Shown here in pieces: positions 20,246 to 40,382 of a stretch of DNA of 64,000 nt. The translations under genes and the position numbers were made by a program. Numbering within the stretch: position 1 is the stretch's first letter; every line of letters starts with the position of its first letter. Source of the stretch: Mycobacterium stomatepiae. Lineage in GTDB: Bacteria; Actinomycetota; Actinomycetes; Mycobacteriales; Mycobacteriaceae. The DNA lies in contig NZ_AP022587.1 in NCBI RefSeq assembly GCF_010731715.1, positions 5,208,001-5,272,000 on the forward strand, read 5' to 3'. The notes beneath the pieces are model-generated. The model was not told the origin of the DNA, ran no database searches, and saw nothing but the letters and a program-made list of their open reading frames with translations.

Positions 20246-20267
20246 CCAGCTGCGAGATGGAGTTTAG

Positions 20268-24305: not shown

Positions 24306-25148
24306 TTACAGCTTGACTTTGCCCATGATCAGGTCGATCAGCGGCTTACCCGGTGCGTACGACCCGGTCACCGATGCCATCGTGTGTCCGGTGTCCACCA
24401 GCAGCGTGACGCCGCTGACGCCACTGGCGGCCTCGCTGTTCAGGAACGCCATGACGTCGCCCATCTGCTCCGGGGTGTGCACCTTGGAGCCGGTCTCGTC
24501 GCGGTAGTCCTGGGCGAAGGAGAGCCACAGGTCCGCGTTGGCCTGGGCCAGCGGGGTATCGGTCGGGCCGGGACAGATCGCGTTGATGCGAATGCCCTTC
24601 TTTAGCAGGGGGTATCCCTGGTTGGCCACGTAGGCGTTGATGATCTTCTTGCTGGTGCCGTAGTGGATGATGCCCTCGGCCTCGTGGGCCTGCGACCAGG
24701 CCACGGCGGCCGCATAGTCCGGCGTGGCCAGGAACTCGTTGATCAGGTCCAGGTCGTTCTCCCAGCCCATGCCGGCAACCGAGGAGATGAAGCAGATGGC
24801 CGAGCCGTTGGGTAGCTGGTTGTTCTCCAGCAGCCGGTCGATCAGGTGGCGGTGGCCGATGAAGTTGATCTTCAACAGGTCGGTCGTTCCGTCGGCGACA
24901 CCGGCGGCCGAGAACAGAGCGTGGATTGGGCCCTCGACCTGCCCCAACGCGGTGTCGATCGAGGCGGGGTCGCGCAGGTCCACCTGTACCGCCTGGGCAA
25001 CGTCGTAGTCCACCGGCGCGTAGTCCAACACGATGACTTCGGCTCCGAGTTCCGCCGCCGCCTTGGCCGCCGCAGCGCCCATGCCGGTCGCCCCGCCGAC
25101 AACGAGTGCGCGCTTACCGTCGTAGCGCAACCGATCGACAATGGTCAT
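24306..25148 (-). CDS. SDR family oxidoreductase (hydroxysteroid / coniferyl-alcohol dehydrogenase-like)
   Basis: A 280-aa short-chain dehydrogenase. I chose ATG 25148 with GAAGGGG upstream. The NAD-binding motif GGATGMGAAAAK, the SAAG strand, the CFISSVAG motif (catalytic Ser) and HYGTSK (catalytic Tyr and Lys) are intact. The GRINAICPGPTDTPL-type segment (RINAICPGPTDTPL) and overall layout resemble 3-alpha-hydroxysteroid and coniferyl-alcohol dehydrogenases, which oxidise a secondary or benzylic alcohol. It lies about 100 bp downstream of the tandem-TetR gene, so it is a likely target of that regulator. Confidence 0.85.
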   Translation of the reverse strand: MTIVDRLRYDGKRALVVGGATGMGAAAAKAAAELGAEVIVLDYAPVDYDVAQAVQVDLRDPASIDTALGQVEGPIHALFSAAGVADGTTDLLKINFIGHRHLIDRLLENNQLPNGSAICFISSVAGMGWENDLDLINEFLATPDYAAAVAWSQAHEAEGIIHYGTSKKIINAYVANQGYPLLKKGIRINAICPGPTDTPLAQANADLWLSFAQDYRDETGSKVHTPEQMGDVMAFLNSEAASGVSGVTLLVDTGHTMASVTGSYAPGKPLIDLIMGKVKL

Positions 25149-25176
25149 GGAAATCCCCTTCTCGGATAATGCCAAC

Positions 25177-25251: not shown

Positions 25252-26562
25252 CTACTTGCCGCGCCCGGCTACACCGCGCAACACGGTGTCACGGATGTGC
25301 ACCAGCGCCGGTCGCTTGCCGATTTCGCGCAGAATGTTCTCCGGGATCCACTGCAGCCCGATGACGCAGCGCGCCAGCATCGCGGTGGACGGAGCGTCGA
25401 TGCGGATCTCGCCGGAGCGGATCCCTTCGGAGAGCAGGGATTTCATCTGTCGCAGCCGGGTGGGATACGACCAGCCCGGATTGGCGGTCGGCGGTGATTG
25501 CCGCATCCATGCCAACTGAATCCGGAATTCGTCGGAGAATCGGTCCAGCGCGTTGACGTTGATCCAGCTCAGCGCGTCCAGCTTCTCGACCGGCGTGGCA
25601 TCTGAGCGCAGCACGCTGACCCATCCGGCCTCGACCTTCTGCCCGAACGACACCATGATCGAGTCGAGAAGTTCGTCCTTGGAGCCGATCACCCGATAGA
25701 CGGTGCCGGTGCCAAGCCCCGCCGCCGACGCGATGTCGCGAATCGTGGTGGCCTCATAACCTTTGCGACCGAATTCGGTTCGTGCCACCGCACGGACATG
25801 GGCGGCCTTGTCGCTGGGATCGGCGTCGCTGTCGTCGGCCCACGATTCGATCACCGCGCTGGCGGCCGCGAAGGCGTTGGACCGATCCAGCGCCGCATCG
25901 GTGGGTGGCCGGGCCGCCAACCCTTGCAAGATGATTCGGCACAGCAGCTCTGCCACCTGGTCGGGCGCGGAGTTGTGGCGCATGACGTCGAGCCCGACCT
26001 GCAGCATGGTCTGGCAGATGCGGTCGGCCAGCGTGGGGAGGTCGATGTCGGGTTTGATGTAGCCGCTCCAGCGGCCTGCACGCAGCGTTTGCACCATCGC
26101 CTCTTGCACCGCGACGGACTGCTGCCGGGTCAGATTCATCAATTCCGGGTCCGCGCTCGGTCCCTCGTAGAACGACATCTGCAGCGCGGCCCGATGCTGC
26201 ACGGCACAGTTGGCGACCGCCGACCCCAGCTCGATGATTTTCGCGGCGGCCGGTCGCGAATCGGCGTCGTCCAACCTCGCCTTGGCGTTTTCCCCAATGC
26301 GGTGCAGATCGTCTTGATAGCGGCGGATCAGCTCGATCAGGATCGCTTCTTTGGATTCGAAGTGGTGATACAGGCTCCCGGGCAGAATGCCCGCCGCGTC
26401 GGCGATCTCCTGCAACGAGGTGCGCAATCCCGAGGACGCGATCAAAGACGCGGCGGTCTGCAGGATCTCGGTGCGACGCGTCCCGGAGTCGTCGTTGCCG
26501 GCCTGATCCAGACGATCGGCCGTTGCCCGCTTGCCCTTAGCCAAGGTCTCGGCTTTGGCCAT
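25252..26562 (-). CDS. Tandem-domain TetR regulator (Mce3R-like)
   Basis: A 436-aa protein holding two complete TetR repressors in one chain. The first DNA-binding domain is near residues 30-80 (ILQTAASLIASSGLRTSLQE ... GILPGSLYHHFESKEAIL). The second starts near residue 245 (AVARTEFGRKGYEATTIRDI ... GLGTGTVYRVIGSKDELL), each followed by its own ligand domain. Among mycobacteria the known protein with this layout is Mce3R (Rv1963c, about 406 aa), which represses mce3 and lipid-catabolic genes including a fadE pair. Here too an acyl-CoA dehydrogenase pair lies next door. Orthology is not claimed. Confidence 0.85.
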   Translation of the reverse strand: MAKAETLAKGKRATADRLDQAGNDDSGTRRTEILQTAASLIASSGLRTSLQEIADAAGILPGSLYHHFESKEAILIELIRRYQDDLHRIGENAKARLDDADSRPAAAKIIELGSAVANCAVQHRAALQMSFYEGPSADPELMNLTRQQSVAVQEAMVQTLRAGRWSGYIKPDIDLPTLADRICQTMLQVGLDVMRHNSAPDQVAELLCRIILQGLAARPPTDAALDRSNAFAAASAVIESWADDSDADPSDKAAHVRAVARTEFGRKGYEATTIRDIASAAGLGTGTVYRVIGSKDELLDSIMVSFGQKVEAGWVSVLRSDATPVEKLDALSWINVNALDRFSDEFRIQLAWMRQSPPTANPGWSYPTRLRQMKSLLSEGIRSGEIRIDAPSTAMLARCVIGLQWIPENILREIGKRPALVHIRDTVLRGVAGRGK

Positions 26563-26652
26563 GGCTAACGGTGCGCATACCGAGAGGACTGCGACCGGGC
26601 CAAGCTGCGCATCCGTCCTCCTGCCGAACCAAATCTTTGTTAGAGGTTATCA

Positions 26653-26664
26653 GATTGCCCAATC
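26653..26664. promoter_or_regulatory. Palindrome GATTG-CC-CAATC upstream of the tandem TetR gene
   Basis: Perfect 5-bp arms with a two-base centre, about 90 bp upstream of the regulator start at 26562. The core TTGnnCAA is shared with the two sites near 29,126 and 29,241 in the promoter region of the dehydrogenase and norD genes. This suggests a common operator, by inference only. The rest of 26,563-26,826 shows no convincing gene. Confidence 0.45.
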
Positions 26665-26826
26665 GGAAACCCGGCTCAAATGCGCTGCTAACAGCGGTGA
26701 CAACCCATTTTAAGGTCCTGGAGTCCGGGGCCGCCCCACCTGTCCAGCCCGACCACCAGCCAGCGCCGGGCCTGCGAGTCCGAGCCGTAGCGGAACGGGT
26801 GGCGGTCGGCAGGTATTCGATATCCA

Positions 26827-27912
26827 TCAGCGGCCTCTCTTGGTAAGGCGCGCACCAACTTCGGCGAGATACCGGTCGGGCCCGCCGAGAAGCGCGCTCC
26901 AGCTCAGCAGGCGCTTGAGGCAGAGGTGCGCGTCGTGTTCCCAGGTGTAGCCGATCCCGCCGAACACCTGGATCGCCGTGTCGCCGACGGTGGCCAGTCG
27001 CCCGGCGAACGCCTTCGCCCGCGCCGCGGCGAGATGCCTTTCCTCGGGCGTGGCGGCGTCGGCGGCCCAGAGCGCATGGATCACCCCGCTGCGGGCCAGT
27101 TCGACCGTCTCGTACATGTCGACGCAGAGGTGCTGGATCGCCTGAAACGACCCGACGACCTGACCGAATTGCTTTCTGACTTTCGCGTATTCGACGGCGA
27201 GGTCCATGACGGCCCGGGCGGCGCCGAGCGCGTCGGCCGCGGTGGCGATCAGCAGGTCGTCGATCACCGCCGCAACGTCGGCCGGTGCCGCCGTAGCCAG
27301 CCGCCGCGCGGGCGTGCCGTCGAGCCGGACGCGAAACTGCTTGCGGGTCTGGTCGATACCGCGCTCGGGCGCTACCGTGACCGTCGCAGTGTCGGTGTTC
27401 ACCGCGAAAAGCCCGGTGCCGTTTGGTTCTTCGGCCAGCACCAGCAGGATGTCGGCCGCCGCGGCGTCGGACACGTCGCCGAGCTCGCCCCGCAGGACAT
27501 CGCCGGCGTACACCGCGACGTTCTCGAAGTCCAAGAAGCTGACGGTGGCGATCGTCGTCCCGCCGGCGATGCCGGCCAAAATTGTTGCGGCGGAGGCGTT
27601 GTCGCAGAGATGAGTCAAGGCGCGCGGCGCGGCCACCGCGGTCGACAACCACGGACCGGGATGCAGCGCGGCGCCGAGCTCTTCGGCCACCACGCCGGCC
27701 TCGATCATCGTCATCCCGGCGCCGCCGTGCTCCTCCGGCACCAACAGCCCGGTGGTGCCGAGGTCGGCCAGGCCACGCCAGACCGCGTCCTCGATACCGG
27801 CCGGATCGTCGAGCAGTTCGCGCACGTGACCCGAGATCGGAGCCTTGTCGGCAAGGAAGCGGCGGGTGGTGTCGCGCAGTGCGACCTGCTCGTCGGTGAG
27901 TTCGAGGTTCAT
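26827..27912 (-). CDS. Acyl-CoA dehydrogenase, small/beta-type subunit (FadE)
   Basis: A 361-aa acyl-CoA dehydrogenase starting at ATG 27912, which overlaps the stop of the preceding fadE by four bases. It has the family layout: an N-terminal helical domain (LELTDEQVALRDTTRRFL), a shortened beta domain and a C-terminal helical domain with EYAKVRKQFGQVVGSFQAIQH and QVFGGIGYTWEHDAHLCLKR. Adjacent unequal fadE genes in mycobacteria often encode alpha2-beta2 heterotetramers acting on steroid or branched acyl-CoAs. That architecture is likely here, but the partner gene carries a stop codon. Confidence 0.88.
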   Translation of the reverse strand: MNLELTDEQVALRDTTRRFLADKAPISGHVRELLDDPAGIEDAVWRGLADLGTTGLLVPEEHGGAGMTMIEAGVVAEELGAALHPGPWLSTAVAAPRALTHLCDNASAATILAGIAGGTTIATVSFLDFENVAVYAGDVLRGELGDVSDAAAADILLVLAEEPNGTGLFAVNTDTATVTVAPERGIDQTRKQFRVRLDGTPARRLATAAPADVAAVIDDLLIATAADALGAARAVMDLAVEYAKVRKQFGQVVGSFQAIQHLCVDMYETVELARSGVIHALWAADAATPEERHLAAARAKAFAGRLATVGDTAIQVFGGIGYTWEHDAHLCLKRLLSWSALLGGPDRYLAEVGARLTKRGR

Positions 27913-29063
27913 TTGCGTGGCAATCCGAGGACGCGTTGCGCGGTGATGTTCTTGTTGATCTGCGTGGTTCCGCCCGCGATGGTCAGCGAGCGCGAGGTGA
28001 GACGGTAGTTCGCCCACGCGGCGTTGTCGCCGCGGGCGCCCAGCACGTCGAAAGCCAACGCGGCCATGTCCTGTCCGATCTCACCCCATACGGTCTTGGC
28101 GAGGCTGGCCGATCCGAACGCGGTGATCTCCGAGCCGCCGTGCAGTGTCGCCGAGATCGACCGCTGACACAGGACCTCGAGATATTTGATGCGGACCGCG
28201 ATTTCGCCGAGGCGACGCAGCGTTACCGCGTCTTCGAGCGCGTCGGTTTGTGCGGCGATGTCGTCGACCAGTTCTTCCAGTCGCACCTGCATCTCGGCGT
28301 AGAGCCGTGCGGCCCCGGCCCGTTCGTGACTGAGCGTGGTGGTGGCAACCTGCCAACCCCCGTTGAGCGGACCCAGCAACGCGTCGGCCGGCACCCGCAC
28401 GTCGTGAAAGAACACCTCGGCGAAATCCCTTTCCCCGTTCAGCGTGACGAGCGGACGGACCTCGATGCCGGGCAGGCTCATGTCGACGATCAGGCACGAG
28501 ATCCCCTGGTGCTTCGGAGCGTCGGGATCGGTGCGCACATAAAGCTGGCACCAGTGCGCGCGGTGCCCGAGCGAGGTCCAGATCTTCTGGCCGTTGACGA
28601 CGAAGTGGTCACCGTCGGCGACCGCGCGGGTGCGCAGCGAGGCGAGGTCGGATCCGGCCTCGGGCTCCGACATGCCCTGGCACCAGATGTCGTCGGCGCG
28701 CATCATCCGGGGCAGCAGCGTCTTCTTCTGTTCTTCGGTGCCGTACTGCATGATCGCGGGAGCGATATTGTTCATCCCAATGACGTTGAGCGGCATCGGA
28801 GCCCGCGCGCGCGTGGTCTCCTCGGTGTAGATCAGCTGCTAGAGAACGGTCGCTCCGCGACCGCCGTATTCGCGGGGCCAGGAGACCGCGGCCCATCCGG
28901 CGTCCGACATCGTGCGGCTCCAGCCGCGCAGCATCTCGAATGACGCATCGTCGCGGCCCGAGGGCCGGCGGGCGGCTACCAGTTCGTCGGTCAGGTTCGC
29001 GCACAGCCAGTCGCGCAGCGCGATGCGGAACTGTTCCAATTCCGCCGGATAGGAGAAGTCCAC
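27909..29063 (-). pseudogene. Acyl-CoA dehydrogenase alpha-type subunit with in-frame amber stop
   Basis: From ATG 29063 the first 74 codons (MDFSYPAELEQFRIALRDWL ... WPREYGGRGATVL) run into a TAG at 28839-28841. Translation continues in the same frame for 309 further residues with no other lesion (QLIYTEETTRARAPMPLNV ... TTQINKNITAQRVLGLPRK). Homologues have Glu or Gln here, so a single substitution (GAG or CAG to TAG) explains it. The downstream part keeps the FAD and substrate motifs (WCQGMSEPEAGSDLASLRT, NGQKIWTS). An internal start at ATG 28796 would lack the N-terminal helical domain. A substitution is less likely than an indel to be a sequencing error. Confidence 0.88.
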
Positions 29064-29098
29064 TTTTCCTTGGCTCTGGTCGTGGCTAACTGCGACTT

Positions 29099-29248
29099 AG
29101 CCGGACTTTACGGTGGTGCATTTTGTTGGTCAACAACGTCTACCACCGGTGACCACAGCCACCTGGCCGGTCAAGGCAATCGAGACGCGCTCCCGATTCG
29201 TTGACTGCCGTGAAGCCGGACTCTACGGCGGAACAGATATTTGGTCAA
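29099..29248. repeat. Duplicated promoter element in the fadE-norD intergenic region
   Basis: AGCCGGACTTTACGGTGG (29099-29116) and AGCCGGACTCTACGGCGG (29214-29231) differ at two positions. In each copy TTGGTCAA begins exactly 27 bases after the repeat start (29126 and 29241). In the first copy this sits in a perfect dyad TTGTTG-GT-CAACAA (29123-29136). Both copies face the same way, 115 bp apart, between the minus-strand dehydrogenase genes and the plus-strand norD. They look like a duplicated operator or promoter for the two divergent transcripts. Confidence 0.55.
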
Positions 29249-29263
29249 TAAGTCGGAGGTGGC

Positions 29264-30958
29264 GTGGTTGACGACGCTGGTGCTCAGCGGTGGCAGACCC
29301 TGGGCATGCTTGCGTCCGCGCTGGCGGGCCGGGCAGTTGCGGTTGCCGGGCTGTCCTCGGGCGAGCCGGCCTGGACGGATGGCCAGACGATTCACGTCGA
29401 TATGGACGCCCCGGCCCGCGCCAAACTCGAAGCCGTCGCCGTGCAGGCGTCGATGATCGCGGCGGGCAGCCTGGACCCCGGCGTCCTGCGGTGCCTGGTC
29501 CGCCACCCGTGACTGGCCAAGCGCTACCTCGCGGTTGAGGGCCACCGCGCGTTGGTCGCCAATGAGCATCTGCTACCAACGGTTTTGGCGTCGCTGGGCA
29601 ATCGCGACATCGCGAGCCGCGCCGAGTCGCCGGCCGCGTCGTTGGACCTGGCCAGCGGGCGGGCGCTCCTTGGCGACCCGGCGCCGGCGTTCGGCGTGAT
29701 CCGCGCGGCCAAGGTGCTGGCCGCGAGCGCCCGGGTCGCCACGAAAGACGAAGAGAGCGACGCCCAACATGTGCGGCGGAAAAGTGGCCCGCAGGAGCTG
29801 GCGGAGCTCGACGACGGCGAGGTCGACGATTCCGCCGATCCCGACCTGTTCACCAGCCCGGTCGGCGGAGGCGGCTTCATCGGCAAGTGGCTGACGACGA
29901 TGCTGTCGCCGAAACGGCGGGGTGCGCACGGCAGCGGCGGCGGACCGCCCGGCGCGGATGCCGCGACGCATCGCAGCGACTCCGCAAAACGGGGTGCGCA
30001 CGCCGTGTCGTCGCTGGCCTCGACCGCGAGCGAGGATGTCAACGGCGCCACCGCTGATGGCGTCCGGTATCCGGAATGGGACGTCGCGCGCAAGCGCTAC
30101 CGGCCGGCGTGGTGCACGGTGCGCGAGGTCGAGCCGCAGATCAAGGTCTCGGCGACGCGGGCGATCGAGAACGCCGTCGGCGTGCGACGGCCGTTGTCGC
30201 GACTCGGCATGGGTTTGTACCGTCGTCACCGCCAATCGCAGGGGGACGACATCGACATCGACGCCGCCGTCGAGGCCCGAGTCGAGGTGCGGGCCGGCTC
30301 GGTGCCCGACGAGTCGGTGTACACCGACAGCTTGCGGCGCCGCCGCGACCTGTCAGCGTTGCTGCTTCTCGACGTGTCGGGTTCGGCCGCCGAGCCCGGA
30401 ACGGTCGGGCGCACCGTGCACGAACAACAGCGCACGGCGGTGGCCAACCTGACCGTCGCGCTGCACGACCTCGGCGACCGCGTCTCGCTCTACGCCTATT
30501 ACTCGCAGGGACGCACGGCGGTAACCATGGTGCCGGTCAAGCGGTTCGACGACCATCTCGACGTCCATATCATCCGGCGGCTGAACAGCCTGGAACCCGG
30601 AGCCTACTCCCGGCTTGGCGCCGCCATCCGGCATGGCTCGTCGGTGCTGGAGGCGAGCGGTGGCACGGCACGGCGGCTGCTCGTGCTGCTGTCCGACGGC
30701 CTTGCCTACGACCATGGGTACGAGCGGGCCTACGGCGCCGCCGATGCGCGCCGGGCGCTGTCCGAGGCCCGTCGGCGCGGGATCGGCTGCGTGTGCCTGA
30801 CCATAGGTGCGGGCACCGACGTGGCATCGCTGCGCCGGGTGTTCGGCGGCACCGCACACGCCACGATCGGGCGCCCGGACCAGCTCGCCGGGGTGATCGG
30901 ACCGCTGTTCCGCTCCGCGTTGCGCTCGGCGGAGGTGCGCCGGCGGGTGAGTGCCTGA
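29264..30958 (+). pseudogene. NorD-like VWA-domain protein with in-frame opal stop
   Basis: The frame opening at 29264 runs 82 codons to a TGA at 29510-29512, then continues in the same frame as LAKRYLAVEGHRALVANEHL to the stop at 30958. A single CGA to TGA change would explain it (RHP-R-LAKRYL). The full protein would be about 564 aa. The second half is a von Willebrand A domain with the metal-site motif LLLLDVSGSAAEP (DxSxS) and later LLVLLSDGLAYDHGY. The layout matches NorD/CbbO-type proteins, which work with NorQ/CbbQ AAA+ ATPases to activate metalloenzymes. The norQ-like gene follows. A C-terminal product from a GTG or ATG after the stop could still carry the VWA domain. Confidence 0.8.
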
Positions 30959-31091
30959 GCATCCGGTGTCACGCTGATGCCATGTCCCCGAATGCAGTTC
31001 GTGTACGCATCCCGACAGCAGAGCTGTTCGTCGGACGCACTTGAAACAAACATCTGTCCCGGTTAGGCACCGATCACACGGAAGGGACGTT

Positions 31092-31940
31092 ATGGCCAAC
31101 GAGTCCGGGATCGCTTGTCGCAACGGTGCGAATCCCGACCCGGACGCCGACGCTGCCGGGGTGCGGCCCTACTACCGGGCGGTCGGCGGCGAAGAGGCGA
31201 TCTTCAAAGCCGCCTACCGTCAGGGTCTGGCGCTGGTATTGAAGGGGCCGACGGGTTGCGGCAAGACCCGCTTCGTCGAGGCGATGGCCCACGACTTGGG
31301 CCGACCGCCGATCAGCGTGTCCTGTCACGACGACCTCACCACGGCCGACTTGGTCGGGCGGTATCTGCTGCGGGGCGACGAGACGGTGTGGGTGGACGGC
31401 CCGCTGACCCGCGCGGTGCGAGAGGGCGCCATCTGCTACCTGGACGAAGTCGTGGAAGCCCGCCAGGACACCACCGTGGTGCTGCATCCGCTGGCCGACC
31501 ACCGGCGGCAGCTACCGATCGAGCGTCTCGGCATCACGCTGGACGCGGCTCCCGGATTCGGCCTGGTGGTGTCCTACAACCCCGGCTACCAAAGCGTGCT
31601 CAAGGACCTGAAGGATTCGACGCGCCAGCGCATGGTCGCGATCGAATTCGGTTATCCCGCAGCCGTTGTCGAGGAGGGTATCGTCGCGCACGAAGCCGGT
31701 GTGGACGCGGCGACCGCGGCCGAACTGGTGCGCTTCGGGCAGGCCATCCGCCGCCTGGAGACCGGGGGCCTGCGCGAGGTCGCGTCGACCCGCGTGCTGA
31801 TCGCGGCGGGCCGGCTCGTCGCCGAGGGTCTGACCATGGTCGAAGCCGCGCGGGCAGCGATCGCCGGGCCGCTCACCGACGACGTCGCCGTGGGCCGGGC
31901 GCTGGGCGAGATGGTCGACGTCTACTTGGGCGGCGGATAG
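31092..31940 (+). CDS. NorQ/CbbQ-type MoxR AAA+ ATPase
   Basis: A 282-aa AAA+ ATPase starting at ATG 31092 with GGAAGGGA upstream. Walker A is GPTGCGKT, Walker B is ICYLDEVVEA, and SYNPGYQS (sensor-1 region) and the C-terminal lid are typical of the CbbQ/NirQ/NorQ/GpvN group. These ATPases pair with VWA proteins to remodel or load metal into partner enzymes (nitric oxide reductase, Rubisco). No nitric oxide reductase or Rubisco gene is nearby, so the client is unknown; the P450 or AveC-like protein downstream are candidates by position only. Confidence 0.88.
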   Translation: MANESGIACRNGANPDPDADAAGVRPYYRAVGGEEAIFKAAYRQGLALVLKGPTGCGKTRFVEAMAHDLGRPPISVSCHDDLTTADLVGRYLLRGDETVWVDGPLTRAVREGAICYLDEVVEARQDTTVVLHPLADHRRQLPIERLGITLDAAPGFGLVVSYNPGYQSVLKDLKDSTRQRMVAIEFGYPAAVVEEGIVAHEAGVDAATAAELVRFGQAIRRLETGGLREVASTRVLIAAGRLVAEGLTMVEAARAAIAGPLTDDVAVGRALGEMVDVYLGGG

Positions 31941-32034
31941 ATGATTGACGCTGCGGAGCGCTGCCGCTAGCGTCTGAACAAATATTAGGTCTGCCGTGAA
32001 TCGTTGGGCGTGAACAGGTCACCCGGGAGGTCAG

Positions 32035-33150
32035 ATGTCGTACGAAAGCAGCGCTGAGCCGATCAAGGTCGGCTACCTGATGGACTTCAGGCTGCCGCCC
32101 GGTTTCCCCGAGGACCTGTTCGCGTCTTTCACCCGGACTTTCGATCTCATCTTCGAGGAGGCGGCCGCCCAGGGCCTGATGGACCGTCCGGTGCAGATGA
32201 TCTATCGCGAGGTGGAGGGTCTGCCCAAGGGTTCGGTCAAGGCGGTGATCGACGCGTTTGGCGAATTGGTCGACGAGGGCTGCCTGGTGGTCTTCGGGCC
32301 GCACATCACCGACAACTGCGTCCCGACCCGCGAAGCGATCGAGGAGCGGTTCAAGGTGCCCGCGATCAGCGTCACCGGCACCGACGACTGGCTGGGCGAG
32401 TGGACCTTCGCCTTCCCCCAGGGATCGATGACCGATGAGCCGATCTTCCTGGCCGACCTCATCGGCAAACGAGGACTCGGCGAGATCGGCGTCCTGGTCG
32501 AGCAGAGCCTTATCGGCGAGAGCTACCTGAAGAACCTGCGAACCGCGTGCCGGCGCAAGGGCATTCGCATCGTGTCCGAGGTTTCGATCGCCCAGACGGC
32601 CCAGGACATCAACGCCGCGGTGCAGACGCTGCATGAAGCCAAGGCGGAGGCGATCGTGCACCTGGGATTCGGCTTCGGCATCGTCTTCATCAACCCCGCC
32701 CTCGAGAACCTCGGCTGGGATCCACCCCGGTTCACGACCACCGCTTGGCAGAACGCCTGGGTCAACCCGATCATGTGGAACGCGTTCATGGGCTGGACCG
32801 GTGTCGACCAGTACGACGAGGCGAACCGGATCGGCCAGCACTTCCTCGATAGCTACGCCGGGAAGTACAACAGCCGCCCCGAGTTCTGCGTGACCGTGGT
32901 GAACCGCGACGTCGCCGCGACGCTGGTGCGGGCCTTCACCGACGCTCATCCGCTGAGCCCGCGCGGCGTCAAGGAGTCGCTGGAGCGGGTCAAGATGATG
33001 CCCGCCGCCTCCGGCGCGCCCGGGACTCGGGTGTCGTTCGGGAAGTGGATCCGCCGGGCTTGGATGGGGTCCGGCTATTTGGTCGCACGAACTCTCGATG
33101 CCGACGGTGTCAACTCGCACTTGGTCGATCGCTTCGGAGAGGACGACTGA
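32035..33150 (+). CDS. Orphan type I solute-binding-fold protein (LivK-like), no signal peptide
   Basis: A 371-aa protein with the layout of ABC-transporter branched-chain amino acid binding proteins. It opens EPIKVGYLMDFRLPPGFPED and has VVFGPHITDNCVPTREAIEE, ISVTGTDDWLGEWTFAFPQG and GEIGVLVEQSLIGESYLKNL. It has neither a signal peptide nor a lipobox, and no permease or ATPase gene is near. A cytoplasmic ligand-binding role (sensor or carrier of the pathway compound) is therefore more likely than transport; this is inference. The start follows GGGAGG. Its stop overlaps the ATG of the next small gene (TGATG). Confidence 0.75.
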   Translation: MSYESSAEPIKVGYLMDFRLPPGFPEDLFASFTRTFDLIFEEAAAQGLMDRPVQMIYREVEGLPKGSVKAVIDAFGELVDEGCLVVFGPHITDNCVPTREAIEERFKVPAISVTGTDDWLGEWTFAFPQGSMTDEPIFLADLIGKRGLGEIGVLVEQSLIGESYLKNLRTACRRKGIRIVSEVSIAQTAQDINAAVQTLHEAKAEAIVHLGFGFGIVFINPALENLGWDPPRFTTTAWQNAWVNPIMWNAFMGWTGVDQYDEANRIGQHFLDSYAGKYNSRPEFCVTVVNRDVAATLVRAFTDAHPLSPRGVKESLERVKMMPAASGAPGTRVSFGKWIRRAWMGSGYLVARTLDADGVNSHLVDRFGEDD

Positions 33151-33344
33151 TGCCCACAGAACAGTTCGCACCGCTGACCACGGAAGACAAACCCTCACCG
33201 GCTGAAGGCAAAAAGCGCGGCTGGGGCGGCTGGATAGCCGGGGCCGCTCTGGGCGCATTCGCTCTCTTCTTCATCGCGAATTGCCGTGTCGCCCTTGACC
33301 CGCGCGTCGCCAACCCGAATGTGCAGGGCCGGCCCGCCCGGTGA
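33150..33344 (+). CDS. Small single-pass membrane protein
   Basis: A 64-aa protein starting at ATG 33150, one base into the upstream stop. A Lys-rich stretch (PAEGKKRGWGG) is followed by one hydrophobic helix (WIAGAALGAFALFFIANC), then a short polar tail. No family is recognised. Four-base overlap with the AveC-like gene (GTGA at 33341-33344) shows coupling, so it may be a subunit or membrane partner of that protein. Confidence 0.6.
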   Translation: MPTEQFAPLTTEDKPSPAEGKKRGWGGWIAGAALGAFALFFIANCRVALDPRVANPNVQGRPAR

Positions 33345-34289
33345 AGTTCATCTTCGGCCTGGACTACATCACCTTCCTGCACGTCGCCACGTGCATCATG
33401 CTGCTGGTGCTGCTGGTGGTGTTCATCAGGGGCTGGCGCCGCAATCCGGGCAGCCCGGCGATGTTGATGTTCCTGTGCACCACGCTGATCGTGTGGCAGG
33501 ACCCGATCATGAACTGGTCCCCGTTCGCCGTCTACAACCCTGACCTCATCCACTGGCCGGAATCCTGGCCGCTCGTGTCGATTTCGCCGACCGTCGAGCC
33601 GTTCGTCGTGTTCGGCTACGTGATGTTCTATTTCGGACCGTATTTCCCGGCGGTCTGGATCCTGCGCAAGCTGCAGGCCAAATACGGTCCGCAGTCGTTC
33701 GTTTCGCGACACCCGTTGTGGAGCCTGGGCCTGCTGACCTGTACGATACGGTTTCGTATTCGATGCGTGGCTGGAGATTCAGCTCGTGCACGCGGGGATG
33801 TACATCTACTCGCAAGTGATCCCGTGGGGCTCGGTGTTCACCGGCACCACTTTCCAGTTTCCGCTGATCTGGGAGTCCTTCTCGGTGACCTTCGTGATGA
33901 TTCCGGCGGCCATCCTGTGCTACCGAGACGACACCGGAAAGTCGATGGCCGAGAAGCTCACTGCGAAAGCCAAGGTCTTCCCTAGCCGTCCGGTGCTGGG
34001 CACCTTCCTGGTGATGTTCGCCATCATGAACGTGTCGTACTTCGCCTACGGCGCCTGGTTCTGGGTCATCAAGGCCAGTCATGCGGCGACCTCGGTCGCG
34101 TGCCCATGGCCGTACCCGGAGGCGAAAGTGTATGACCCGCAGTGCTATTACGAGAAGGCTGGCGCGAAAGGCCCATACTCGGTCGGCATCTGGTCGAGCT
34201 GGGCCAGCGGCGAACCGAACGGTCGGCCGCACGTCGAACCGCCGCCGCCGGGCCAGGGCCCCTGCGCGACCGCGGGCCAGCATGGGTGA
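33341..34289 (+). pseudogene. Frameshifted AveC-like (spirocyclase family) membrane protein
   Basis: The frame from GTG 33341 gives helices such as YITFLHVATCIMLLVLLVVF and is sensible up to about LLTCTI (33748). The next frame continues GFVFDAWLEIQLVHAGMYIY to the stop at 34289, ending in YPEAKVYDPQCYYEKAGAKG and GIWSSWASGEP. Removing one base at about 33748-33751 rejoins it (about 315 aa). Length, several membrane helices and the DPQ-YYEKAG segment suggest the actinobacterial spirocyclase AveC family, named for the avermectin enzyme; many members have unknown roles. The assignment is from memory of the family and is moderate. Confidence 0.6.
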
Positions 34290-35293
34290 GTCTCGTGCGG
34301 TCGTGATCACCGGTGCGTCACGGGGTTTGGGGTTCGCTTCGGCGGTCCGCCTCTACCGCGAGGGGTGGCGTGTGGTCGCGGCCATGCGCACACCCGAGAA
34401 GGCGATGCCGCTGCTGCGGCAGGCTATTCAGGATCAGGGGCTGCCACCGCCTGACGAGGATGGGCTGATCGGTGTGCAGCTGGACCTGACCGACGCCGCG
34501 TCGGTTTCCGCGGCGGCCAAGGCAATCGAAGAAGCCGTCGGGGCCCCCTACGCCGTGGTGCACAACGCCGGGATCTCCGCCGCCGGAATGGTGGAGGAGA
34601 CCGATATGGCGCTGTGGCAGCGGATGTACGAGACGAATGTGCTAGGGCCCGTTGCGCTCACCCAGGCGCTGCTGCCGTCCATGCGTGCGGCCGGGGAGGG
34701 CCGAATTGTGTTGGTATCCAGCGCGGCCGGGGTGCGCGGTCAGCCGGCCACCGCGCCGTACTCGGCGGCCAAGGGAGCACTCGAGCGCTGGGGCGAGTCG
34801 ATGGCATGCGAGATAGCGCCCTTCGGTCTGGGTGTCACCGTTTTGGTGGCGGGCACCTACGACACCGAGATCATCACCGATGCCGGCACCACCGACGATC
34901 GTAATTTCGCGGGGCCCTACGCGCGGCTGCACAACACGATGAACAGCCGCGGGCGCTTCGCGATGAAGATGGCGCGGCCACCCCGAGCGGTTCACCGACG
35001 GTTTGGTAAAGGCGTTGGACGACAACGGATCTTTTCGTCGTCGCGGTGTCGGGCCGGATGCATCAATGTTGTTGTTATCCAATCGGGTGCTGCCCGCCAT
35101 CGGGATGCACCACATATCGCGAGTCATCTTGGGCATCCCCAAACAAGGCTCGATGCGCGGTGGGACATGGCCGTTGACGACGAGTCAAAAGGCGATGGTG
35201 CTCGCCGCACGCGTTCTTCCGCAGCCGGTGGTGCAGCGCCTGGCGTCGCTGGTGACCAAGCGCCGCAACGGAAATAAGGGGAATAAGGGGTAG
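34282..35293 (+). pseudogene. Frameshifted SDR oxidoreductase
   Basis: Starts at ATG 34282, overlapping the AveC-like gene by 8 bp. Rossmann motif VVITGASRGLGFASAVRLY, the NAG strand (VVHNAGISAAG), LVSSAAG with the catalytic Ser, and APYSAAKGALERWGESMA with the catalytic Tyr and Lys are present. At the CCCC run 34981-34984 the frame is lost. One C fewer gives ARPPERFTDGLVKALDDNG and continues to the stop at 35293 (about 336 aa). The catalytic core precedes the break, but the C-terminal third, which shapes the substrate pocket, would be garbled. The homopolymer site means sequencing error must be excluded. Confidence 0.8.
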
Positions 35294-35295
35294 GC

Positions 35296-36516
35296 ATGGA
35301 GCAGCTTTTCGACGATCTGGAGGACTTCGGCGCCTTCGACGACGCGATCTCCGGTGACGTGCGTGACCCGTACACCGAGCTGGCACGGCTGCGCCACGAG
35401 GAACCGGTCCAGCGTCTCGAGACCTCGGGGGCGCTTCCACACGAGGAATCGCTGCCGATGTTTATCGTGTATCGCCACGAAGACATCCAGCAGATGTTGC
35501 GCGACAACGAGACGTTCTCCTCGGCGGCCGTCATCGCCGCGTTCGGTCCGGTGCTGGGGGAGGGCGTGATGTTGGGTATGGACGAGCCGGTCCACGGCCG
35601 GCTGCGCTCCCTGGTCTCAAAGGCGTTCTCGCAGAAGTCATTGGCGCGCTGGCAGGACGAGTTGGTCGGCCGCGTCGCGAACAGCCTGATCGACAACTTC
35701 GCTGCCAACGGCAAGGCGGATCTGGTCAAGGACTTCACCTTCGACTATCCGAGCCAGATCATCGCGGGCCTGTTGGGGTTGCCGGAATCCGACTACCCGC
35801 AATTCCAGCGGTGGTCGATTTCGTTGCTGAGTTGGCTGATGAACCCCGAGCGCGGGCTGGCAGCGTCGGCCGCCCTGTGTGAATACTTCGCCCCGATCCT
35901 CGAGGCCCGGCGCGCCGAGCCGAAGGAGGACCTGATCAGCGCGCTCGCTGCGGCCGAGATCGACGGCGAGAAGCTCGCGGACGAAGAGATCTTCTCGTTC
36001 CTTCGGCTGCTGCTGCCCGCCGGCGTCGAGACGACCTACCGGGCATTGGGCAGTCTGCTGTTGGCGCTGTTGTCGGATCCGGTCCAGTTGGCTGCGATCC
36101 GCGCCGACCGGTCGCTGCTGCCGCAGGCGATCGAGGAGGGCGTGCGCTGGGAATCGCCGTTGCTGACCATCACCCGGGTGGCGACTCGCGACACCGAACT
36201 CGGCGGCGTGGCGATCCCGGCCGGGGCGACGGTGATGCCGATGCTGGGTTCGGCGAACCGGCAGGAGGATCGCTACGACGACCCGAACACGTTCAACATT
36301 CACCGGCAGGCCAAGGCGAATCTGGGCTGGGGACACGGCGTGCACGTCTGCCTCGGCATGCACCTGGCCCGCCTCGAGATGCGGACCGCGATCAACCTGT
36401 TGCTCGACCGGCTGCCGAATTTGCGGCTGGATCCCGACGGGCACGACCCACACATCCGCGGGCAGGTTTTCCGATCGCCGACCTCGGTACCCGTGCTGTT
36501 CGACGCGCAGAGATAG
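35296..36516 (+). CDS. Cytochrome P450
   Basis: A 406-aa soluble bacterial P450. The I-helix motif LLPAGVETTYRALGSLL, the K-helix ExxR in IEEGVRWESP and the haem loop WGHGVHVCLGMHLAR (Cys ligand; Trp replaces the usual Phe of FGxGxHxC) are intact. It should hydroxylate a lipid, terpenoid or steroid-like substrate using ferredoxin electrons; no redox partner gene lies in the cluster. The start follows AAGGGG three bases after the SDR stop, so it is co-transcribed. The CYP family number cannot be assigned from memory. Confidence 0.93.
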   Translation: MEQLFDDLEDFGAFDDAISGDVRDPYTELARLRHEEPVQRLETSGALPHEESLPMFIVYRHEDIQQMLRDNETFSSAAVIAAFGPVLGEGVMLGMDEPVHGRLRSLVSKAFSQKSLARWQDELVGRVANSLIDNFAANGKADLVKDFTFDYPSQIIAGLLGLPESDYPQFQRWSISLLSWLMNPERGLAASAALCEYFAPILEARRAEPKEDLISALAAAEIDGEKLADEEIFSFLRLLLPAGVETTYRALGSLLLALLSDPVQLAAIRADRSLLPQAIEEGVRWESPLLTITRVATRDTELGGVAIPAGATVMPMLGSANRQEDRYDDPNTFNIHRQAKANLGWGHGVHVCLGMHLARLEMRTAINLLLDRLPNLRLDPDGHDPHIRGQVFRSPTSVPVLFDAQR

Positions 36517-36662
36517 GGGTGGTCATGGCGTCCGGCGGGCGTGCGGTAATCGCACTTCAGGGCCCTGCCCGCAGGTTGCTGGTTGCCAATCGGCTAGTTT
36601 CCAGTAAGGCTCTCCGCAGGGACGAGTCACAAGACATCGAACGCAAAGAGAGCTGAACAAAA

Positions 36663-38147
36663 ATGGCTGGCACTGTAAAGGTCCGGTTCGAGCCGAAGAT
36701 GATGATCGACGGCAAGCTCGTCGACGGCCAGGCCGGCACCTTCTCCAACATCAACCCGGCGACCGAGGAATCGCTCGGCGAGGTTTCGGACGCCTCGAAA
36801 GAGGACATGCACCGGGCCATCGACGCCGCCCGGCGTGCCTTCGACGAGACCGACTGGTCGACCAACAAGGAGCTGCGCAAGCGCTGCCTGCTGCAGTTGC
36901 ACGAGGCCATCGAGTCCGAGATCGACGAGCTGCGCGAGGAGCTCATCCTCGAGGTCGGCTCGCCCCGGGCCATCACGTTCGGCCCGCAGCTGGACGCCCC
37001 GCTGGAAGACGGGCTGAAGTATCCCGCCCGCCTGATCGACGAGTACGCCTGGGAGACCGACCTCGGCGACAAGGTGATCAGCCTGACCGGCACGCTCACC
37101 ACCCGCAAGGTGTGGCGCGAGCCGGTCGGCGTGGTCGGCGCGATCGTGCCGTGGAACTTCCCGTTCGAGGTCACCCTCAACAAGCTCGGCCAAGCGCTGG
37201 GCACCGGAAACACCGTGGTGCTCAAGCCCGCCCCCAACACCCCGTTCAACGCGAACCGGCTGGGCCGGCTGATCGCCGAAAAGACCGATATCCCAGCCAG
37301 TGTCGTCAACGTGGTCACCGCGTCGGATCACTTCGTGGGTGAGGAGCTGACGCTGTCACCCAAGGTCGACCTGATCTCGTTCACCGGGTCGACGGTGGTC
37401 GGCAAGCGGATCATGGAAAAGGGTGCGGCCACGATGAAGCGGCTGTTCCTGGAGCTTGGCGGCAAGTCGGCCACCATCGTGCTGGAGGACGCCGATTTCG
37501 GGACGGCCTGCATGGTCGGCATCGCGCCGTGCATGCACGCCGGTCAGGGCTGCGCCAACCCGACCCGGCTGCTGCTGCCGCGGTCGCGTTACGACGAGGG
37601 CGTGGAGATCCTCAAGAACATCTACGAGAACGTCACATGCGGCGACCCGCAGGACCCCGGAACGCTGTGCGGCCCAGTGATTTCGCAACGCCAGTACGAG
37701 CGGGTGACAGGCTACATCCAGAAGGGCGTCGATGAGGGCGCCACCGCGCTGGTCGGCGGTCCGGACGCTCCGACCGGTTTCGACAAGGGATATTATGTCC
37801 GCCCAACGCTTTTCACCAGCGTCGACAACAAGATGATGATCGCGCAGGAGGAAATCTTCGGGCCGGTGCTATCGGTGATTCCGTTCGACGACGAAGAGGA
37901 CGCGATCCGAATCGCCAACGACAGCGTCTACGGGTTGGCGGGCAACGTGTTTGCCGGTTCGCTCGAGCATGCGCTGTCGGTGACCCGACGGATCAGGGCC
38001 GGCTTCATGGGTGTCAACGGCGGTGCCCCATACGGCGCCGACACACCTTTCGGTGGCTACAAGGAAAGCGGTGTGGGACGCCAGAACGGCATCGCGGGAT
38101 TCGACCAGTACACCGAGATCAAGTCCGTGGCCTACCCCGCGGTCTGA
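36663..38147 (+). CDS. NAD(P)-dependent aldehyde dehydrogenase
   Basis: A 494-aa aldehyde dehydrogenase of typical length. The NAD fold (VVGAIVPWNFPFEVTLNKLG), the SFTGSTVVGKRIM motif, the general-base Glu in LFLELGGKSATI and the catalytic Cys in HAGQGCANPTRL are intact. The C-terminal GVNGGAPYGADTPFGGYKES is normal. It oxidises an aldehyde to the acid, and in this cluster could act on products of the P450 and SDR. A gap of 146 bp from the P450 contains GGTTGCCAATCGG, weakly like the TTGnnCAA sites. Confidence 0.93.
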   Translation: MAGTVKVRFEPKMMIDGKLVDGQAGTFSNINPATEESLGEVSDASKEDMHRAIDAARRAFDETDWSTNKELRKRCLLQLHEAIESEIDELREELILEVGSPRAITFGPQLDAPLEDGLKYPARLIDEYAWETDLGDKVISLTGTLTTRKVWREPVGVVGAIVPWNFPFEVTLNKLGQALGTGNTVVLKPAPNTPFNANRLGRLIAEKTDIPASVVNVVTASDHFVGEELTLSPKVDLISFTGSTVVGKRIMEKGAATMKRLFLELGGKSATIVLEDADFGTACMVGIAPCMHAGQGCANPTRLLLPRSRYDEGVEILKNIYENVTCGDPQDPGTLCGPVISQRQYERVTGYIQKGVDEGATALVGGPDAPTGFDKGYYVRPTLFTSVDNKMMIAQEEIFGPVLSVIPFDDEEDAIRIANDSVYGLAGNVFAGSLEHALSVTRRIRAGFMGVNGGAPYGADTPFGGYKESGVGRQNGIAGFDQYTEIKSVAYPAV

Positions 38148-38438
38148 TCCGTTAGACACCGTGGCGGCAGGTGTTACCAGTCCGTCGCAGCGCTGCTGCA
38201 CTGGGAAGGGCACGCCCGCCGACCCGCTCGACCTAACATTTGTTCTGGCCGTTGCGCCCGCGCGGGGTCCGTTGCGTGTGCGCTCAGGGCGGACTCCCTC
38301 GGCGTGTCGTCACCCGACCCGCGCACTCATCGCCGGGTGCATCAACGAATTCGCGTGCCCCATGACACCCCGCCCCGAGGTCCCCCAACCCCCTGGTTGA
38401 CAATCGAGGCAAGACCGGAGTCAAAGGAGAAATAAATA

Positions 38439-39582
38439 ATGCCTGAAGCTGTCATCGTCGAGGCCGTGCGCTCGCCCGTCGGCAAGCGCAACGGCGGTCT
38501 CTCCGGGGTGCACCCCGGAGAGCTGTCCGCGCAGGTGCTCAACGGACTGGCCACCCGCGCCGGCATCGACCCCGAGATCGTCGACGACGTGATCTGGGGC
38601 TGCGTGATGCAGGCCGGCGAGCAGGCTCTCGACATCGGTCGCACCGCGCTGTTGGCCGCGGGCTGGCCGGAGACGGTGCCGGGTGTGACCGTCGACCGCC
38701 AGTGCGGATCGAGCCAGCAGTCCATCCACTTCGCCGCGGCCGGCGTGGTGGCCGGCCACTACGACGTCGTCGTCGCCGGTGGTGTGGAGTCGATGTCGCG
38801 CACCCCGATGGGGGCATCTCTGGCCAACGGTGGGCGGCCCTACCCGGAGAGCTTCATCTCGCGCTACGACGGCAGGATCCCCAACCAAGGCCTCGGTGCC
38901 GAGATGATCGCCGAACAGTGGGGATTCGACCGCACCGCACTCGACCAATTCTCCCTCGACTCGCACGAAAAGGCCGCTGCCGCACAAGATTCCGGTGCAT
39001 TTGACGACCAGATCGTGGGCATCAAGGACTCCGACGGCAACGTCGTGCTCAAGGACGAGGGCATTCGACGCGGCACCCCGATGGAAAAGATGGCCTCGCT
39101 GAAGCCGGCGTTCAAGGAGGACGGCGTGATCCACGCCGTCCTCGCAGATCTCCGACGGTGCGGCCGCGTTGCTGTTCATGTCCGCGGAGAAGGCCAAGGA
39201 CTTGGGCCTCACACCAATTGCTAAGGTGCACACCGCAACCCTGGCCGGCGCCGACCCGGTCATCATGCTGACCGCGCCGATCCCGGCCACCCAGAAAGTG
39301 CTGAAGCGGTCCGGCCTGTCGATCAGCGACATCGGGGCATACGAGGTCAACGAGGCGTTCGCACCTGTTCCGCTGGCGTGGCTCAAAGACATCGGCGCCG
39401 ACGAGAAGAAGCTCAACCCCAACGGCGGTGCGATCGCGCTCGGTCACCCGCTCGGCGGCTCCGGCGCGCGGATCATGACCACGCTGGTCTACCACATGCG
39501 GGACAAGGGGATTCGCTACGGCCTACAGACGATGTGTGAGGGTGGTGGCCAGGCCAACGCCACCATTGTGGAGCTCCTGTGA
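38439..39582 (+). pseudogene. Thiolase (acetyl-CoA acetyltransferase) with 5-base deletion
   Basis: Begins PEAVIVEAVRSPVGKRNGGL after AAGGAG. The nucleophile Cys lies in VDRQCGSSQQSIH, and the second half has EVNEAFAPVPLAW, GGAIALGHPLGGSGARIM (catalytic His) and MCEGGGQANATI (catalytic Cys). Between them the conserved HAGNSSQISDGAAA motif has lost five bases: the text reads CACGCC-G-TCCTCGCAG at 39133-39145, where GGCAAC before TCCTCG is expected. This removes the Gly-Asn and shifts the frame. It is not a homopolymer slip, so a real deletion is likely. The separated halves cannot form an active thiolase. Confidence 0.87.
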
Positions 39583-40382
39583 CGGACGCTGACGGCGCTG
39601 CGCCGGCAGTACTCGTTGAGCGCCGCGGCAACGTGCTGGTCATTACCATCAATCGGCCGGAGGGGCGCAACGCGATCAACGCGGCGGTCAGCATCGGCGT
39701 CGGGGATGCGCTCGAAGAAGCGCAGCACGACCTCGACGTGCGGGCGGTGGTGATCACCGGCGCCGGCGACAAATCGTTTTGTGCCGGAGCTGATCTCAAG
39801 GCGATCGCCCGCCGGGAGAACCTGTATCACCCCGACCACCCCGAGTACGGCTTCGCCGGGTATGTGCATCACTTCATCGACAAGCCCACGATCGCGGCGG
39901 TCAACGGCACCGCCCTGGGCGGCGGCACCGAGCTGGCACTGGCCAGCGATCTGGTCGTCGCCCACGAGCTGGCGAAATTCGGTCTGCCCGAAGTCAAACG
40001 CGGACTGATCGCCGCGGCCGGCGGTGTCTTCCGCATCGTCGATCAGCTGCCCCGCAAGGTCGCGATGGAGCTGCTGTTGACGGGCGAACCGATGACGGCG
40101 TCCGACGCCTGGGAATGGGGCCTGGTCAACCAGGTCGTCAAGGACGGCTCGGTGCTCGACGCGGCACTCGCGATGGCGGCGCGCATCACCGTCAACGCGC
40201 CGCTGTCGGTGCAGGCCAGCAAGCGCATCGCCGCCGGCGTCGACGACGGCGTCATCACCGGCGACGAGATCGGCTGGAAGCGCACCGTGAACGAGATGCG
40301 CACCCTGATCCGATCCGAGGACGCCAAGGAAGGGCCGTTGGCGTTCGCCGAGAAGCGGGAGCCGGTCTGGAAGGCGCGCTAG
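39579..40382 (+). CDS. Enoyl-CoA hydratase/isomerase (crotonase family)
   Basis: A 267-aa crotonase. It starts at GTG 39579 overlapping the thiolase stop (GTGA). The oxyanion-hole strands are visible: GDKSFCAGADLKAIARRE and NGTALGGGTELALASDLVVA. The Glu in PEVKRGLIAAAGG sits where hydratases carry a catalytic acid. It ends near the stop of the convergent FAD gene. It hydrates or isomerises an enoyl-CoA in the same beta-oxidation-like path. Confidence 0.9.
   Translation: MTDADGAAPAVLVERRGNVLVITINRPEGRNAINAAVSIGVGDALEEAQHDLDVRAVVITGAGDKSFCAGADLKAIARRENLYHPDHPEYGFAGYVHHFIDKPTIAAVNGTALGGGTELALASDLVVAHELAKFGLPEVKRGLIAAAGGVFRIVDQLPRKVAMELLLTGEPMTASDAWEWGLVNQVVKDGSVLDAALAMAARITVNAPLSVQASKRIAAGVDDGVITGDEIGWKRTVNEMRTLIRSEDAKEGPLAFAEKREPVWKAR

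What the first reader, a model, noticed from the sequence alone, without database searches (positions are those of the whole stretch)
25252..40382. NorQD-AveC-P450 catabolic island under a tandem-TetR regulator: candidate undescribed pathway
The region combines parts that are rarely discussed together: a double-domain TetR repressor, SDRs, a heteromeric acyl-CoA dehydrogenase pair, a VWA/AAA+ activation pair (NorD/NorQ) without nitric oxide reductase, a solute-binding-fold protein without signal peptide or transporter, a small membrane protein overlapping an AveC-like membrane enzyme, a P450, an aldehyde dehydrogenase, a thiolase and a hydratase. Overlapping stops and starts (TGATG, GTGA, 8-bp overlap) show tight coupling from the binding-fold gene to the P450. 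The working idea is that NorQD matures or remodels a metal-dependent or membrane enzyme (AveC-like or P450) acting on a cyclic lipid or terpenoid, with products finished by beta-oxidation.
Basis: partly seen in the sequence, partly recalled or inferred. Interest (0 to 1): 0.75.

Follow-up and report, generated by a model that had tools for sequence, protein, structure and literature searches.

The report
Chaperone pair dedicated to AveC proteins
A motor-and-adaptor pair of bacterial proteins, known for loading iron into nitric oxide reductase, turns up in mycobacteria and some unrelated bacteria next to a different membrane enzyme of unknown chemistry (the AveC-like family), which suggests that this enzyme too is matured by such a pair; in the genome read here the gene cluster itself looks broken.

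Summary
The island is real, but the gene list needs correcting. In this assembly AveC lies in three pieces, the SDR and thiolase in two each, and NorD and one acyl-CoA dehydrogenase carry in-frame stops; the "small membrane protein" is AveC's own N-terminus. Assembly error is not excluded.

In relatives the module is conserved: NorD-NorQ-binding protein-AveC-SDR-ALDH/P450. Of the first 62 loci found by NorQ alone, 60 carry AveC; of the last 18, one does. AveC and NorQ occur together in 106 of 148 genus genomes, one without the other in 7; the link recurs in Nevskiales, another phylum. The stable core is AveC+NorD+NorQ, in several gene orders, with varying partners.

Best reading: NorQD is a dedicated maturation machine for AveC-like membrane proteins, which share membrane carboxylates and a cytosolic DDxG loop that could dock NorD. 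Metal insertion is inferred; metal-free remodelling is the main rival. Some AveC copies stand without NorQD. No paper in my searches discusses the pairing; one lists such genes together without comment.

The parts
24306..25175 (-). SDR, nearest NCBIfam model coniferyl-alcohol dehydrogenase (below cut-off)
   Evidence: L018 relative
25252..26562 (-). tandem TetR regulator, two TetR_N stretches
26827..27912 (-). acyl-CoA dehydrogenase a
27909..29063 (-). acyl-CoA dehydrogenase b, interrupted by an in-frame stop
29230..29248 (+). candidate TetR operator GGAACAGATATTTGGTCAA
29264..30958 (+). NorD-like VWA protein, interrupted by an in-frame stop near its N-terminus
31092..31940 (+). NorQ-like AAA+ ATPase, whole
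32035..33150 (+). Peripla_BP_6 binding-fold protein without signal peptide, whole
33341..33754 (+). second piece of AveC-like gene
33750..34289 (+). third piece of AveC-like gene
34282..34983 (+). SDR, first piece, overlaps the AveC end by 8 bases
34982..35281 (+). SDR, second piece in another frame
35296..36516 (+). cytochrome P450, whole
36663..38147 (+). aldehyde dehydrogenase, whole; best NCBIfam model TIGR04284 below cut-off
38439..39137 (+). thiolase, first piece
39139..39582 (+). thiolase, second piece in another frame
39579..40382 (+). enoyl-CoA hydratase, whole

Best explanation
The heart of the island is a three-part machine. The AveC-like protein is a membrane enzyme of about seven helices; NorQ (AAA+ motor) and NorD (VWA adaptor) are its private maturation chaperones, as NorQD is for nitric oxide reductase. 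NorD would dock by its MIDAS site on the conserved acidic DDxG loop on the cytosolic side of AveC (inferred). ATP-driven twisting by NorQ would then open the helix bundle so that a metal ion can be set into a carboxylate cluster (D119, E151, D206, E210, E242/243) at the outer ends of helices 3-6 (inferred). The mature enzyme acts on a hydrophobic substrate; SDR, P450 and ALDH carry on, and acyl-CoA dehydrogenase, hydratase and thiolase finish by beta-oxidation, under a tandem TetR (inferred from gene content). Shown here: the AveC-NorQD association, its depth, the shared residues, and that this copy is broken in the assembly. Not shown: contact, metal, substrate. I put the dedicated AveC-NorQD link at about 0.85 and metal insertion as its purpose at about 0.4.
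For: Loci picked by NorQ alone: AveC in 60 of the first 62 (57 same strand, 3 opposite), in 1 of the last 18; a COX1 (NorB-type) gene beside NorQ in 4 of the 4 of those 18 whose neighbour I scanned. Genus sample, 148 genomes: both 106, AveC only 5, NorQ only 2, neither 35. Of 84 listed long-frame AveC places 69 lie within 5 kb of a listed NorQ; of 12 of the 15 exceptions fetched, 3 have NorQD adjacent, 1 a third-type pair within 5 kb, 1 a NorQ remnant, 7 none. Phylum sample, 296 genomes: all 8 with AveC over cut-off also have CbbQ_C, against 25 of the other 288. Nevskiales, 85 genomes: both 12, AveC only 3, NorQ only 6, neither 64; 23 of 37 AveC places within 10 kb of NorQ. Orders differ (D-Q-binding protein-A; A-Q-D; A-D-Q; D-A-Q) but the trio stays. 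NorQ tree: the NorQ of classes A, B, C and L079 fall in one clade of 108 apart from the COX1-linked ones, support 0.82. NorQ and AveC distances correlate: Mantel r 0.82 over 93 loci, 0.76 within class A. In 111 AveC of classes A, B, C and three others: D119 111, E151 110, D206 108, E210 110, D261 108, D262 107; in 120 class C homologues D119 120, D206 116, E210 120, E242 119, D262 119. Hydropathy puts the carboxylates at ends of neighbouring helices and DDxG in a K/R-rich loop. In cNOR, NorB D220/E222 and the NorD MIDAS are needed (PMC9976466, passages).
Against: Class B AveC stands without NorQD in some genomes: G332 (only weak AAA+ matches genome-wide) and G418, G357, G314 (only a 46-48% NorQ elsewhere); all four keep the carboxylates. 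Other AveC copies (L170, L171, L173, L207) showed no NorQ in the stretch fetched. L040 has NorD-NorQ-binding protein without AveC. Class S AveC (21 sequences) lacks E151, D206 and E210, yet in six Nevskiales genomes sits in an island with a second NorQD pair, so the carboxylates are not a simple mark of NorQD dependence. No histidine is conserved across classes A, B and C, unusual for an iron site. The E151 column fell below the 93% print threshold in the 120 class C homologues (90% or more in the 52-row alignment). Only class A forms a single split in both trees as I labelled the classes. No structure could be predicted. Genomes are related, and CbbQ_C also counts the third NorQ type, so p-values overstate independence.
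Confidence: 0.6

Rival explanations
1. NorQD remodels AveC without any metal: it frees an inhibited or misfolded AveC or drives assembly of an AveC complex, as CbbQO is thought to do for Rubisco.
For: CbbQ is nearly as close in sequence as NorQ (E 2e-84 against 4e-88); no histidine ligand is conserved; class S lacks most of the carboxylates but has a NorQD pair in its island in Nevskiales.
Against: Membrane-embedded carboxylates kept in classes A, B and C; the nearest solved NorQ relatives include those of a membrane metalloenzyme; ferredoxin and ferredoxin reductase beside class C AveC in L158, reductase alone in L156.
Confidence: 0.3
2. NorQD serves the P450 or another soluble enzyme of the island, and AveC is a bystander.
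For: P450 is a steady neighbour in class A; a P450 follows the class B triad in L150 and NorQD-free AveC in L165 and L166.
Against: No P450 labelled in the fetched stretches around class B triads L147, L148, L149, L151, L154 or in class C L158; AveC is the shared partner across gene orders.
Confidence: 0.06
3. AveC and NorQD only share regulation and travel together as a catabolic island, without a direct functional tie.
For: Some AveC copies lack NorQD nearby and L040 has NorQD without AveC.
Against: Repeated adjacency with different gene orders and partners in two phyla; near-complete co-occurrence in the genus sample.
Confidence: 0.05

Closest known systems
NorQ/NorD of cytochrome c nitric oxide reductase (Paracoccus denitrificans, Jhaorihella thermophila)
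   Same: Best solved relatives: NorQ 9qhd E 4e-88; NorD 9qhd_G E 6e-38 over residues 271-563 of the L018 protein; AAA+ motor plus VWA adaptor; the client is a multi-helix membrane protein.
   Different: No COX1 family gene among island proteins scanned; separate NorQ clade; AveC-like partner; the T of the MIDAS is mostly S; the N-terminal part of NorD gave no match in the PDB sequences.
CbbQ/CbbO Rubisco activase
   Same: CbbQ_C domain; CbbQ 6l1q E 2e-84.
   Different: No Rubisco domain among island proteins scanned.
MoxR-VWA pair of mycobacterial CO dehydrogenase (MSMEG_0748/0751)
   Same: MoxR-VWA pair proposed for metalloenzyme maturation in mycobacteria (PMC12657314, passages).
   Different: That pair lies downstream of CO dehydrogenase genes; no such domain among the island proteins scanned.
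AveC spirocyclase/dehydratase of avermectin biosynthesis (PF17198)
   Same: The island gene and its relatives match PF17198 over the cut-off.
   Different: No polyketide synthase among island proteins scanned; catabolic surroundings. I had no avermectin AveC sequence to compare.

Membership tests
MoxR/CbbQ-NorQ AAA+ ATPases | AAA_5 domain, Walker A and B, CbbQ_C domain | tested here: met
   131 of 133 NorQ frames hold both motifs
NorD-type VWA adaptors | C-terminal VWA with MIDAS DxSxS-T-D | tested here: met
   DxSxS pattern in 90 of 96 NorD frames; at the T position S in 61, T in 12, not located in 23 (loose patterns); aligned to a solved NorD; the window copy has DVSGS and SDG but an in-frame stop upstream
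NorQD of nitric oxide reductase | gene beside norB (COX1 family) | tested here: not met
   no COX1 among the 20 window frames scanned; COX1 in 4 of 4 control loci scanned
NorQD of nitric oxide reductase | inserts non-haem iron into its client | not testable with these tools
   needs protein chemistry
AveC spirocyclases | PF17198 match over cut-off | tested here: met
AveC spirocyclases | spiroketal cyclase/dehydratase activity on a polyketide | not testable with these tools
   no polyketide synthase among the genes scanned
CO dehydrogenase MoxR-VWA pair | next to CO dehydrogenase genes | tested here: not met
   no such domain among the 20 window frames scanned
CbbQO Rubisco activases | next to Rubisco genes | tested here: not met
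   no Rubisco domain among the 20 window frames scanned

The most novel reading that the evidence does not exclude
NorQD-linked AveC-like proteins are an unrecognised family of integral-membrane metalloenzymes with an all-carboxylate (di)metal site, fed by ferredoxin, loaded by a private NorQD through a cytosolic acidic dock, and opening the catabolism of hydrophobic ring compounds; the name 'spirocyclase' then hides an oxygenase-like family.
Probability: 0.22. Interest if true: 0.9.

Novelty: new variant of a known kind. Interest (0 to 1): 0.68.

Why it matters
Few MoxR-VWA chaperone pairs have a proven client (my recollection of the field, in line with the introductions seen). A NorQ clade that nearly always travels with one family of membrane proteins names a testable client and candidate contact residues, and would let the NorQD twisting model be tried on a smaller membrane target than nitric oxide reductase. 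It would also give the large AveC-like family (1461 proteins at E up to 1e-5 among the 8000 candidates scored) a first functional handle.

Tried and rejected
Structure of AveC: structure prediction was never accepted, so clustering of the carboxylates in space rests on hydropathy only. Plasmids: no AveC match; NorQ matches there reach 62% among the 15 rows listed of 560 records. PDB sequences: no relative of AveC at E up to 1, one chance-level hit with the profile (E 0.82), none of the binding-fold protein. Idea dropped: 'the carboxylates occur only where NorQD is'; refuted by NorQD-free class B copies and by class S. Idea dropped: class S is NorQ-free. P450 sequence relatives are too broad to name a substrate. 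The mycofactocin hint (ALDH, SDR models) stays below curated cut-offs (that TIGR04284 relates to mycofactocin is recalled). Patterns that were too strict were redone (by 79; by 108 and 109, of which 108 crashed); an SDR query in a wrong frame was replaced. Rows dropped or uneven: repeated places, fragments and L064 were left out, but not every duplicate (L090 and L158 are one contig; L107 and L159 overlap), and the 111 'linked' AveC include a few copies without NorQ beside them (L135, L136, L138); lists were cut by the tool, so the 5-kb counts are lower bounds, and one 'long' AveC (G000:23460) is class S by sequence; G009 (below cut-off) was left out of the phylum test and four rows below cut-off out. 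Paper searches: 8, 25, 26, 53, 58, 81, 100, 101.
Full report
WHAT IS THERE. The window is part of a 6.2-Mb single-contig genome; its nearest named relatives by NorQ are mycobacteria. Comparison with the relative L018 (Mycobacterium sp. 852014-52450) shows which genes are in one piece: SDR, tandem TetR, first acyl-CoA dehydrogenase, NorQ, binding-fold protein, P450, ALDH, hydratase. AveC lies in three pieces, the SDR behind it and the thiolase in two each; NorD and the second acyl-CoA dehydrogenase carry an in-frame stop. The nitroreductase and the minus-strand SDR of L018 gave no match above 50% identity in the window. The 'small membrane protein' aligns to residues 1-63 of the L018 AveC and is part of the same gene there.

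IS THE DECAY REAL? A codon-usage scan finds same-strand frame switches without a nearby stop 19 times in 178 kb of this genome, 8 of them in the 64-kb window. In two other NorQD loci of the same genome the class C NorD (L012) and the third NorQ (L014) also fall into two frames. So either many genes are decaying or the assembly has indels; the two in-frame stops favour real decay, but reads would be needed. The biology below rests on relatives.

CONSERVATION. Eighty loci were fetched by NorQ alone (the tool kept the best 80 of 584). In L018-L079 AveC is present in 60 of 62: 57 on the same strand, 3 on the opposite strand (L065, L066, L078), none in L040 and none in L076, where the locus ends just after NorQ. 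In L080-L097 it is present in 1 of 18 (L090). In the four of those 18 loci where I scanned a large hydrophobic neighbour (L082, L083, L096, L097) it was a COX1 family protein. The commonest order is NorD-NorQ-binding protein-AveC-SDR followed by ALDH-P450 or P450-ALDH. Class A AveC is found in mycobacteria, Aldersonia, Nocardia, a Gordonia MAG, an Acidimicrobiales and an Actinomycetota MAG, Solimonas terrae (Gammaproteobacteria) and, at a contig edge, a deltaproteobacterial MAG.

CO-OCCURRENCE IN WHOLE GENOMES. Genus sample, 148 genomes: PF17198 in 111, PF08406 in 108, both in 106. AveC only: G332, G343, G408, G415, G435 (G415 and G435 are weak hits). NorQ only: G143 (interrupted) and G372 (weak). 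Of 150 listed AveC places 84 have a long open frame and 69 of these lie within 5 kb of a listed NorQ. I fetched 12 of the 15 exceptions: three have NorQD adjacent (L167, L168, L174), one a third-type NorQD pair about 3 kb away (L172), one a NorQ remnant (L169), seven no NorQ in the stretch (L163-L166, L170, L171, L173). Of the 66 short-frame AveC none is within 5 kb and 23 are within 15 kb. Phylum sample, 296 genomes: 8 with AveC over cut-off, all 8 also with CbbQ_C, against 25 of the other 288. Nevskiales, 85 genomes: 12 both, 3 AveC only, 6 NorQ only, 64 neither; 23 of 37 AveC places lie within 10 kb of NorQ and 19 of 26 NorQ within 10 kb of AveC. The genomes are not independent, so Fisher p-values (4e-26, 1e-8, 5e-8) are only a rough guide.

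ARCHITECTURES. Class A: the window type. Class B: a TetR gene facing AveC-NorQ-NorD (L147, L148, L149, L150, L151, L153, L154; L074 has the same trio with 4-base overlaps). Class C: in L158 (the same contig appears as L090) ferredoxin, ferredoxin reductase (Pyr_redox_2 + Reductase_C), AveC, NorD, alpha/beta hydrolase, NorQ; in L156 reductase, AveC, NorD; in the window's own genome (L012) AveC, a 250-aa membrane protein, NorD in two frames, NorQ. A Nevskia MAG has AveC-NorD-NorQ (L079); other Nevskiales have further orders (L224-L228). In six Nevskiales genomes (L219-L223, L229, the last being Solimonas terrae) class A AveC-SDR-NorD-NorQ shares an island with a second pair, NorD3-NorQ3, and a class S AveC (in the genome of L223 the class S gene lies just beyond the stretch). 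Order and partners vary; the trio stays. P450 is steady in class A, follows the triad in L150 and follows the NorQD-free AveC in L165 and L166, and is not labelled in the stretches around L147, L148, L149, L151, L154 or in L158.

COEVOLUTION. NorQ of classes A, B, C and L079 fall in one clade of 108 with support 0.82, apart from the COX1-linked NorQ and from a small third group (L051's second copy, L157, L172); several inner splits are weak. NorQ and AveC tree distances correlate (r 0.82 over 93 loci, largest of 500 permutations 0.14; within A 0.76, within B 0.83); part of this reflects species relatedness. As I had labelled the classes, only class A forms a single split in both trees.

RESIDUES. 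Classes A, B and C are far apart (a class A profile gives class B about 41-57 bits), so shared residues are informative. In 111 AveC of classes A, B, C and three others D119 is invariant, E151 110, D206 108, E210 110, N123 107, D261 108, D262 107, E269 109. A glutamate follows at 242 (B, C) or 243 (A). In 120 class C homologues: D119 120, D206 116, E210 120, E242 119, D262 119, E269 115; the E151 and D261 columns fell below the 93% print threshold there. By hydropathy and charge class A has about seven helices; the membrane carboxylates lie at the same ends of helices 3-6 and DDxG in the K/R-rich loop after helix 6. In cNOR, NorB D220/E222 on the cytoplasmic surface and the NorD MIDAS are needed for an active, iron-loaded enzyme (PMC9976466, passages), and NorQD is proposed to twist and stretch the NorD linker (PMC13036017: abstract, introduction, discussion). 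The parallel is mine. Against it: class S has P, A and N at 151, 206 and 210 although its island in six Nevskiales genomes holds a second NorQD; NorQD-free class B copies keep the carboxylates (of the three related ones two have DE for DD; G332 is unchanged); no histidine is conserved across A, B and C.

REGULATION. A 19-base element lies before NorD (29230-29248). Core 10-mers of it occur in 33 of 48 upstream regions of class A NorD and in none of 48 control stretches taken from the same loci; the window has one match at up to 3 mismatches, none in 100 shuffles. It is a candidate operator of the tandem TetR (inference).

KNOWN OR NEW. My searches of the open-access library found no paper that discusses AveC with NorQ. 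One lists spirocyclase, P450, SDR, ALDH, TetR twice and CbbQ/NirQ among accessory genes of a Mycobacterium avium isolate (PMC10876796, one passage). A mycobacterial MoxR-VWA pair has been proposed for CO dehydrogenase (PMC12657314, passages); it is a different pair. On AveC itself I saw passages of PMC13303154 and PMC6490886 and PMC5819568. Most subscription journals are not in the library.

VERDICT. That NorQD serves the AveC-like protein is well supported as an association and untested as a mechanism; the P450 alternative is unlikely.

Noticed in passing
window 20003-20265 (-): Cobalamin riboswitch (RF00174, 79.8 bits) upstream of a cobalamin-independent methionine synthase gene (17583-19865 -).
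   Followed up: no
L012:15433-16200, L210, L211, L212, L228, L017: A family of about 250-aa membrane proteins without Pfam match (one member scanned) recurs beside class C and other AveC genes; several copies lie around an AveC-like gene in the window's own genome (L017).
   Followed up: partly
L219-L223, L229: Nevskiales islands hold two AveC classes and two NorQD pairs; in L051 a TonB receptor gene lies between NorD and NorQ.
   Followed up: partly
P0026, P0030, P0078: Single proteins with both AveC and SDR domains: natural fusions or merged overlapping frames.
   Followed up: no
L030: A second NorD-NorQ copy in the same locus of Mycobacterium interjectum.
   Followed up: no
L147, L148, L151, L074: Class B triads lie near Rieske-type oxygenase, TauD, ChsH2-like and thiolase genes.
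   Followed up: no
window 46464-46587: GC-rich tandem repeat with 12-base spacing.
   Followed up: no
window 6311, 8643, 21526, 21854: Further possible frame breaks outside the island (codon-usage scan).
   Followed up: no
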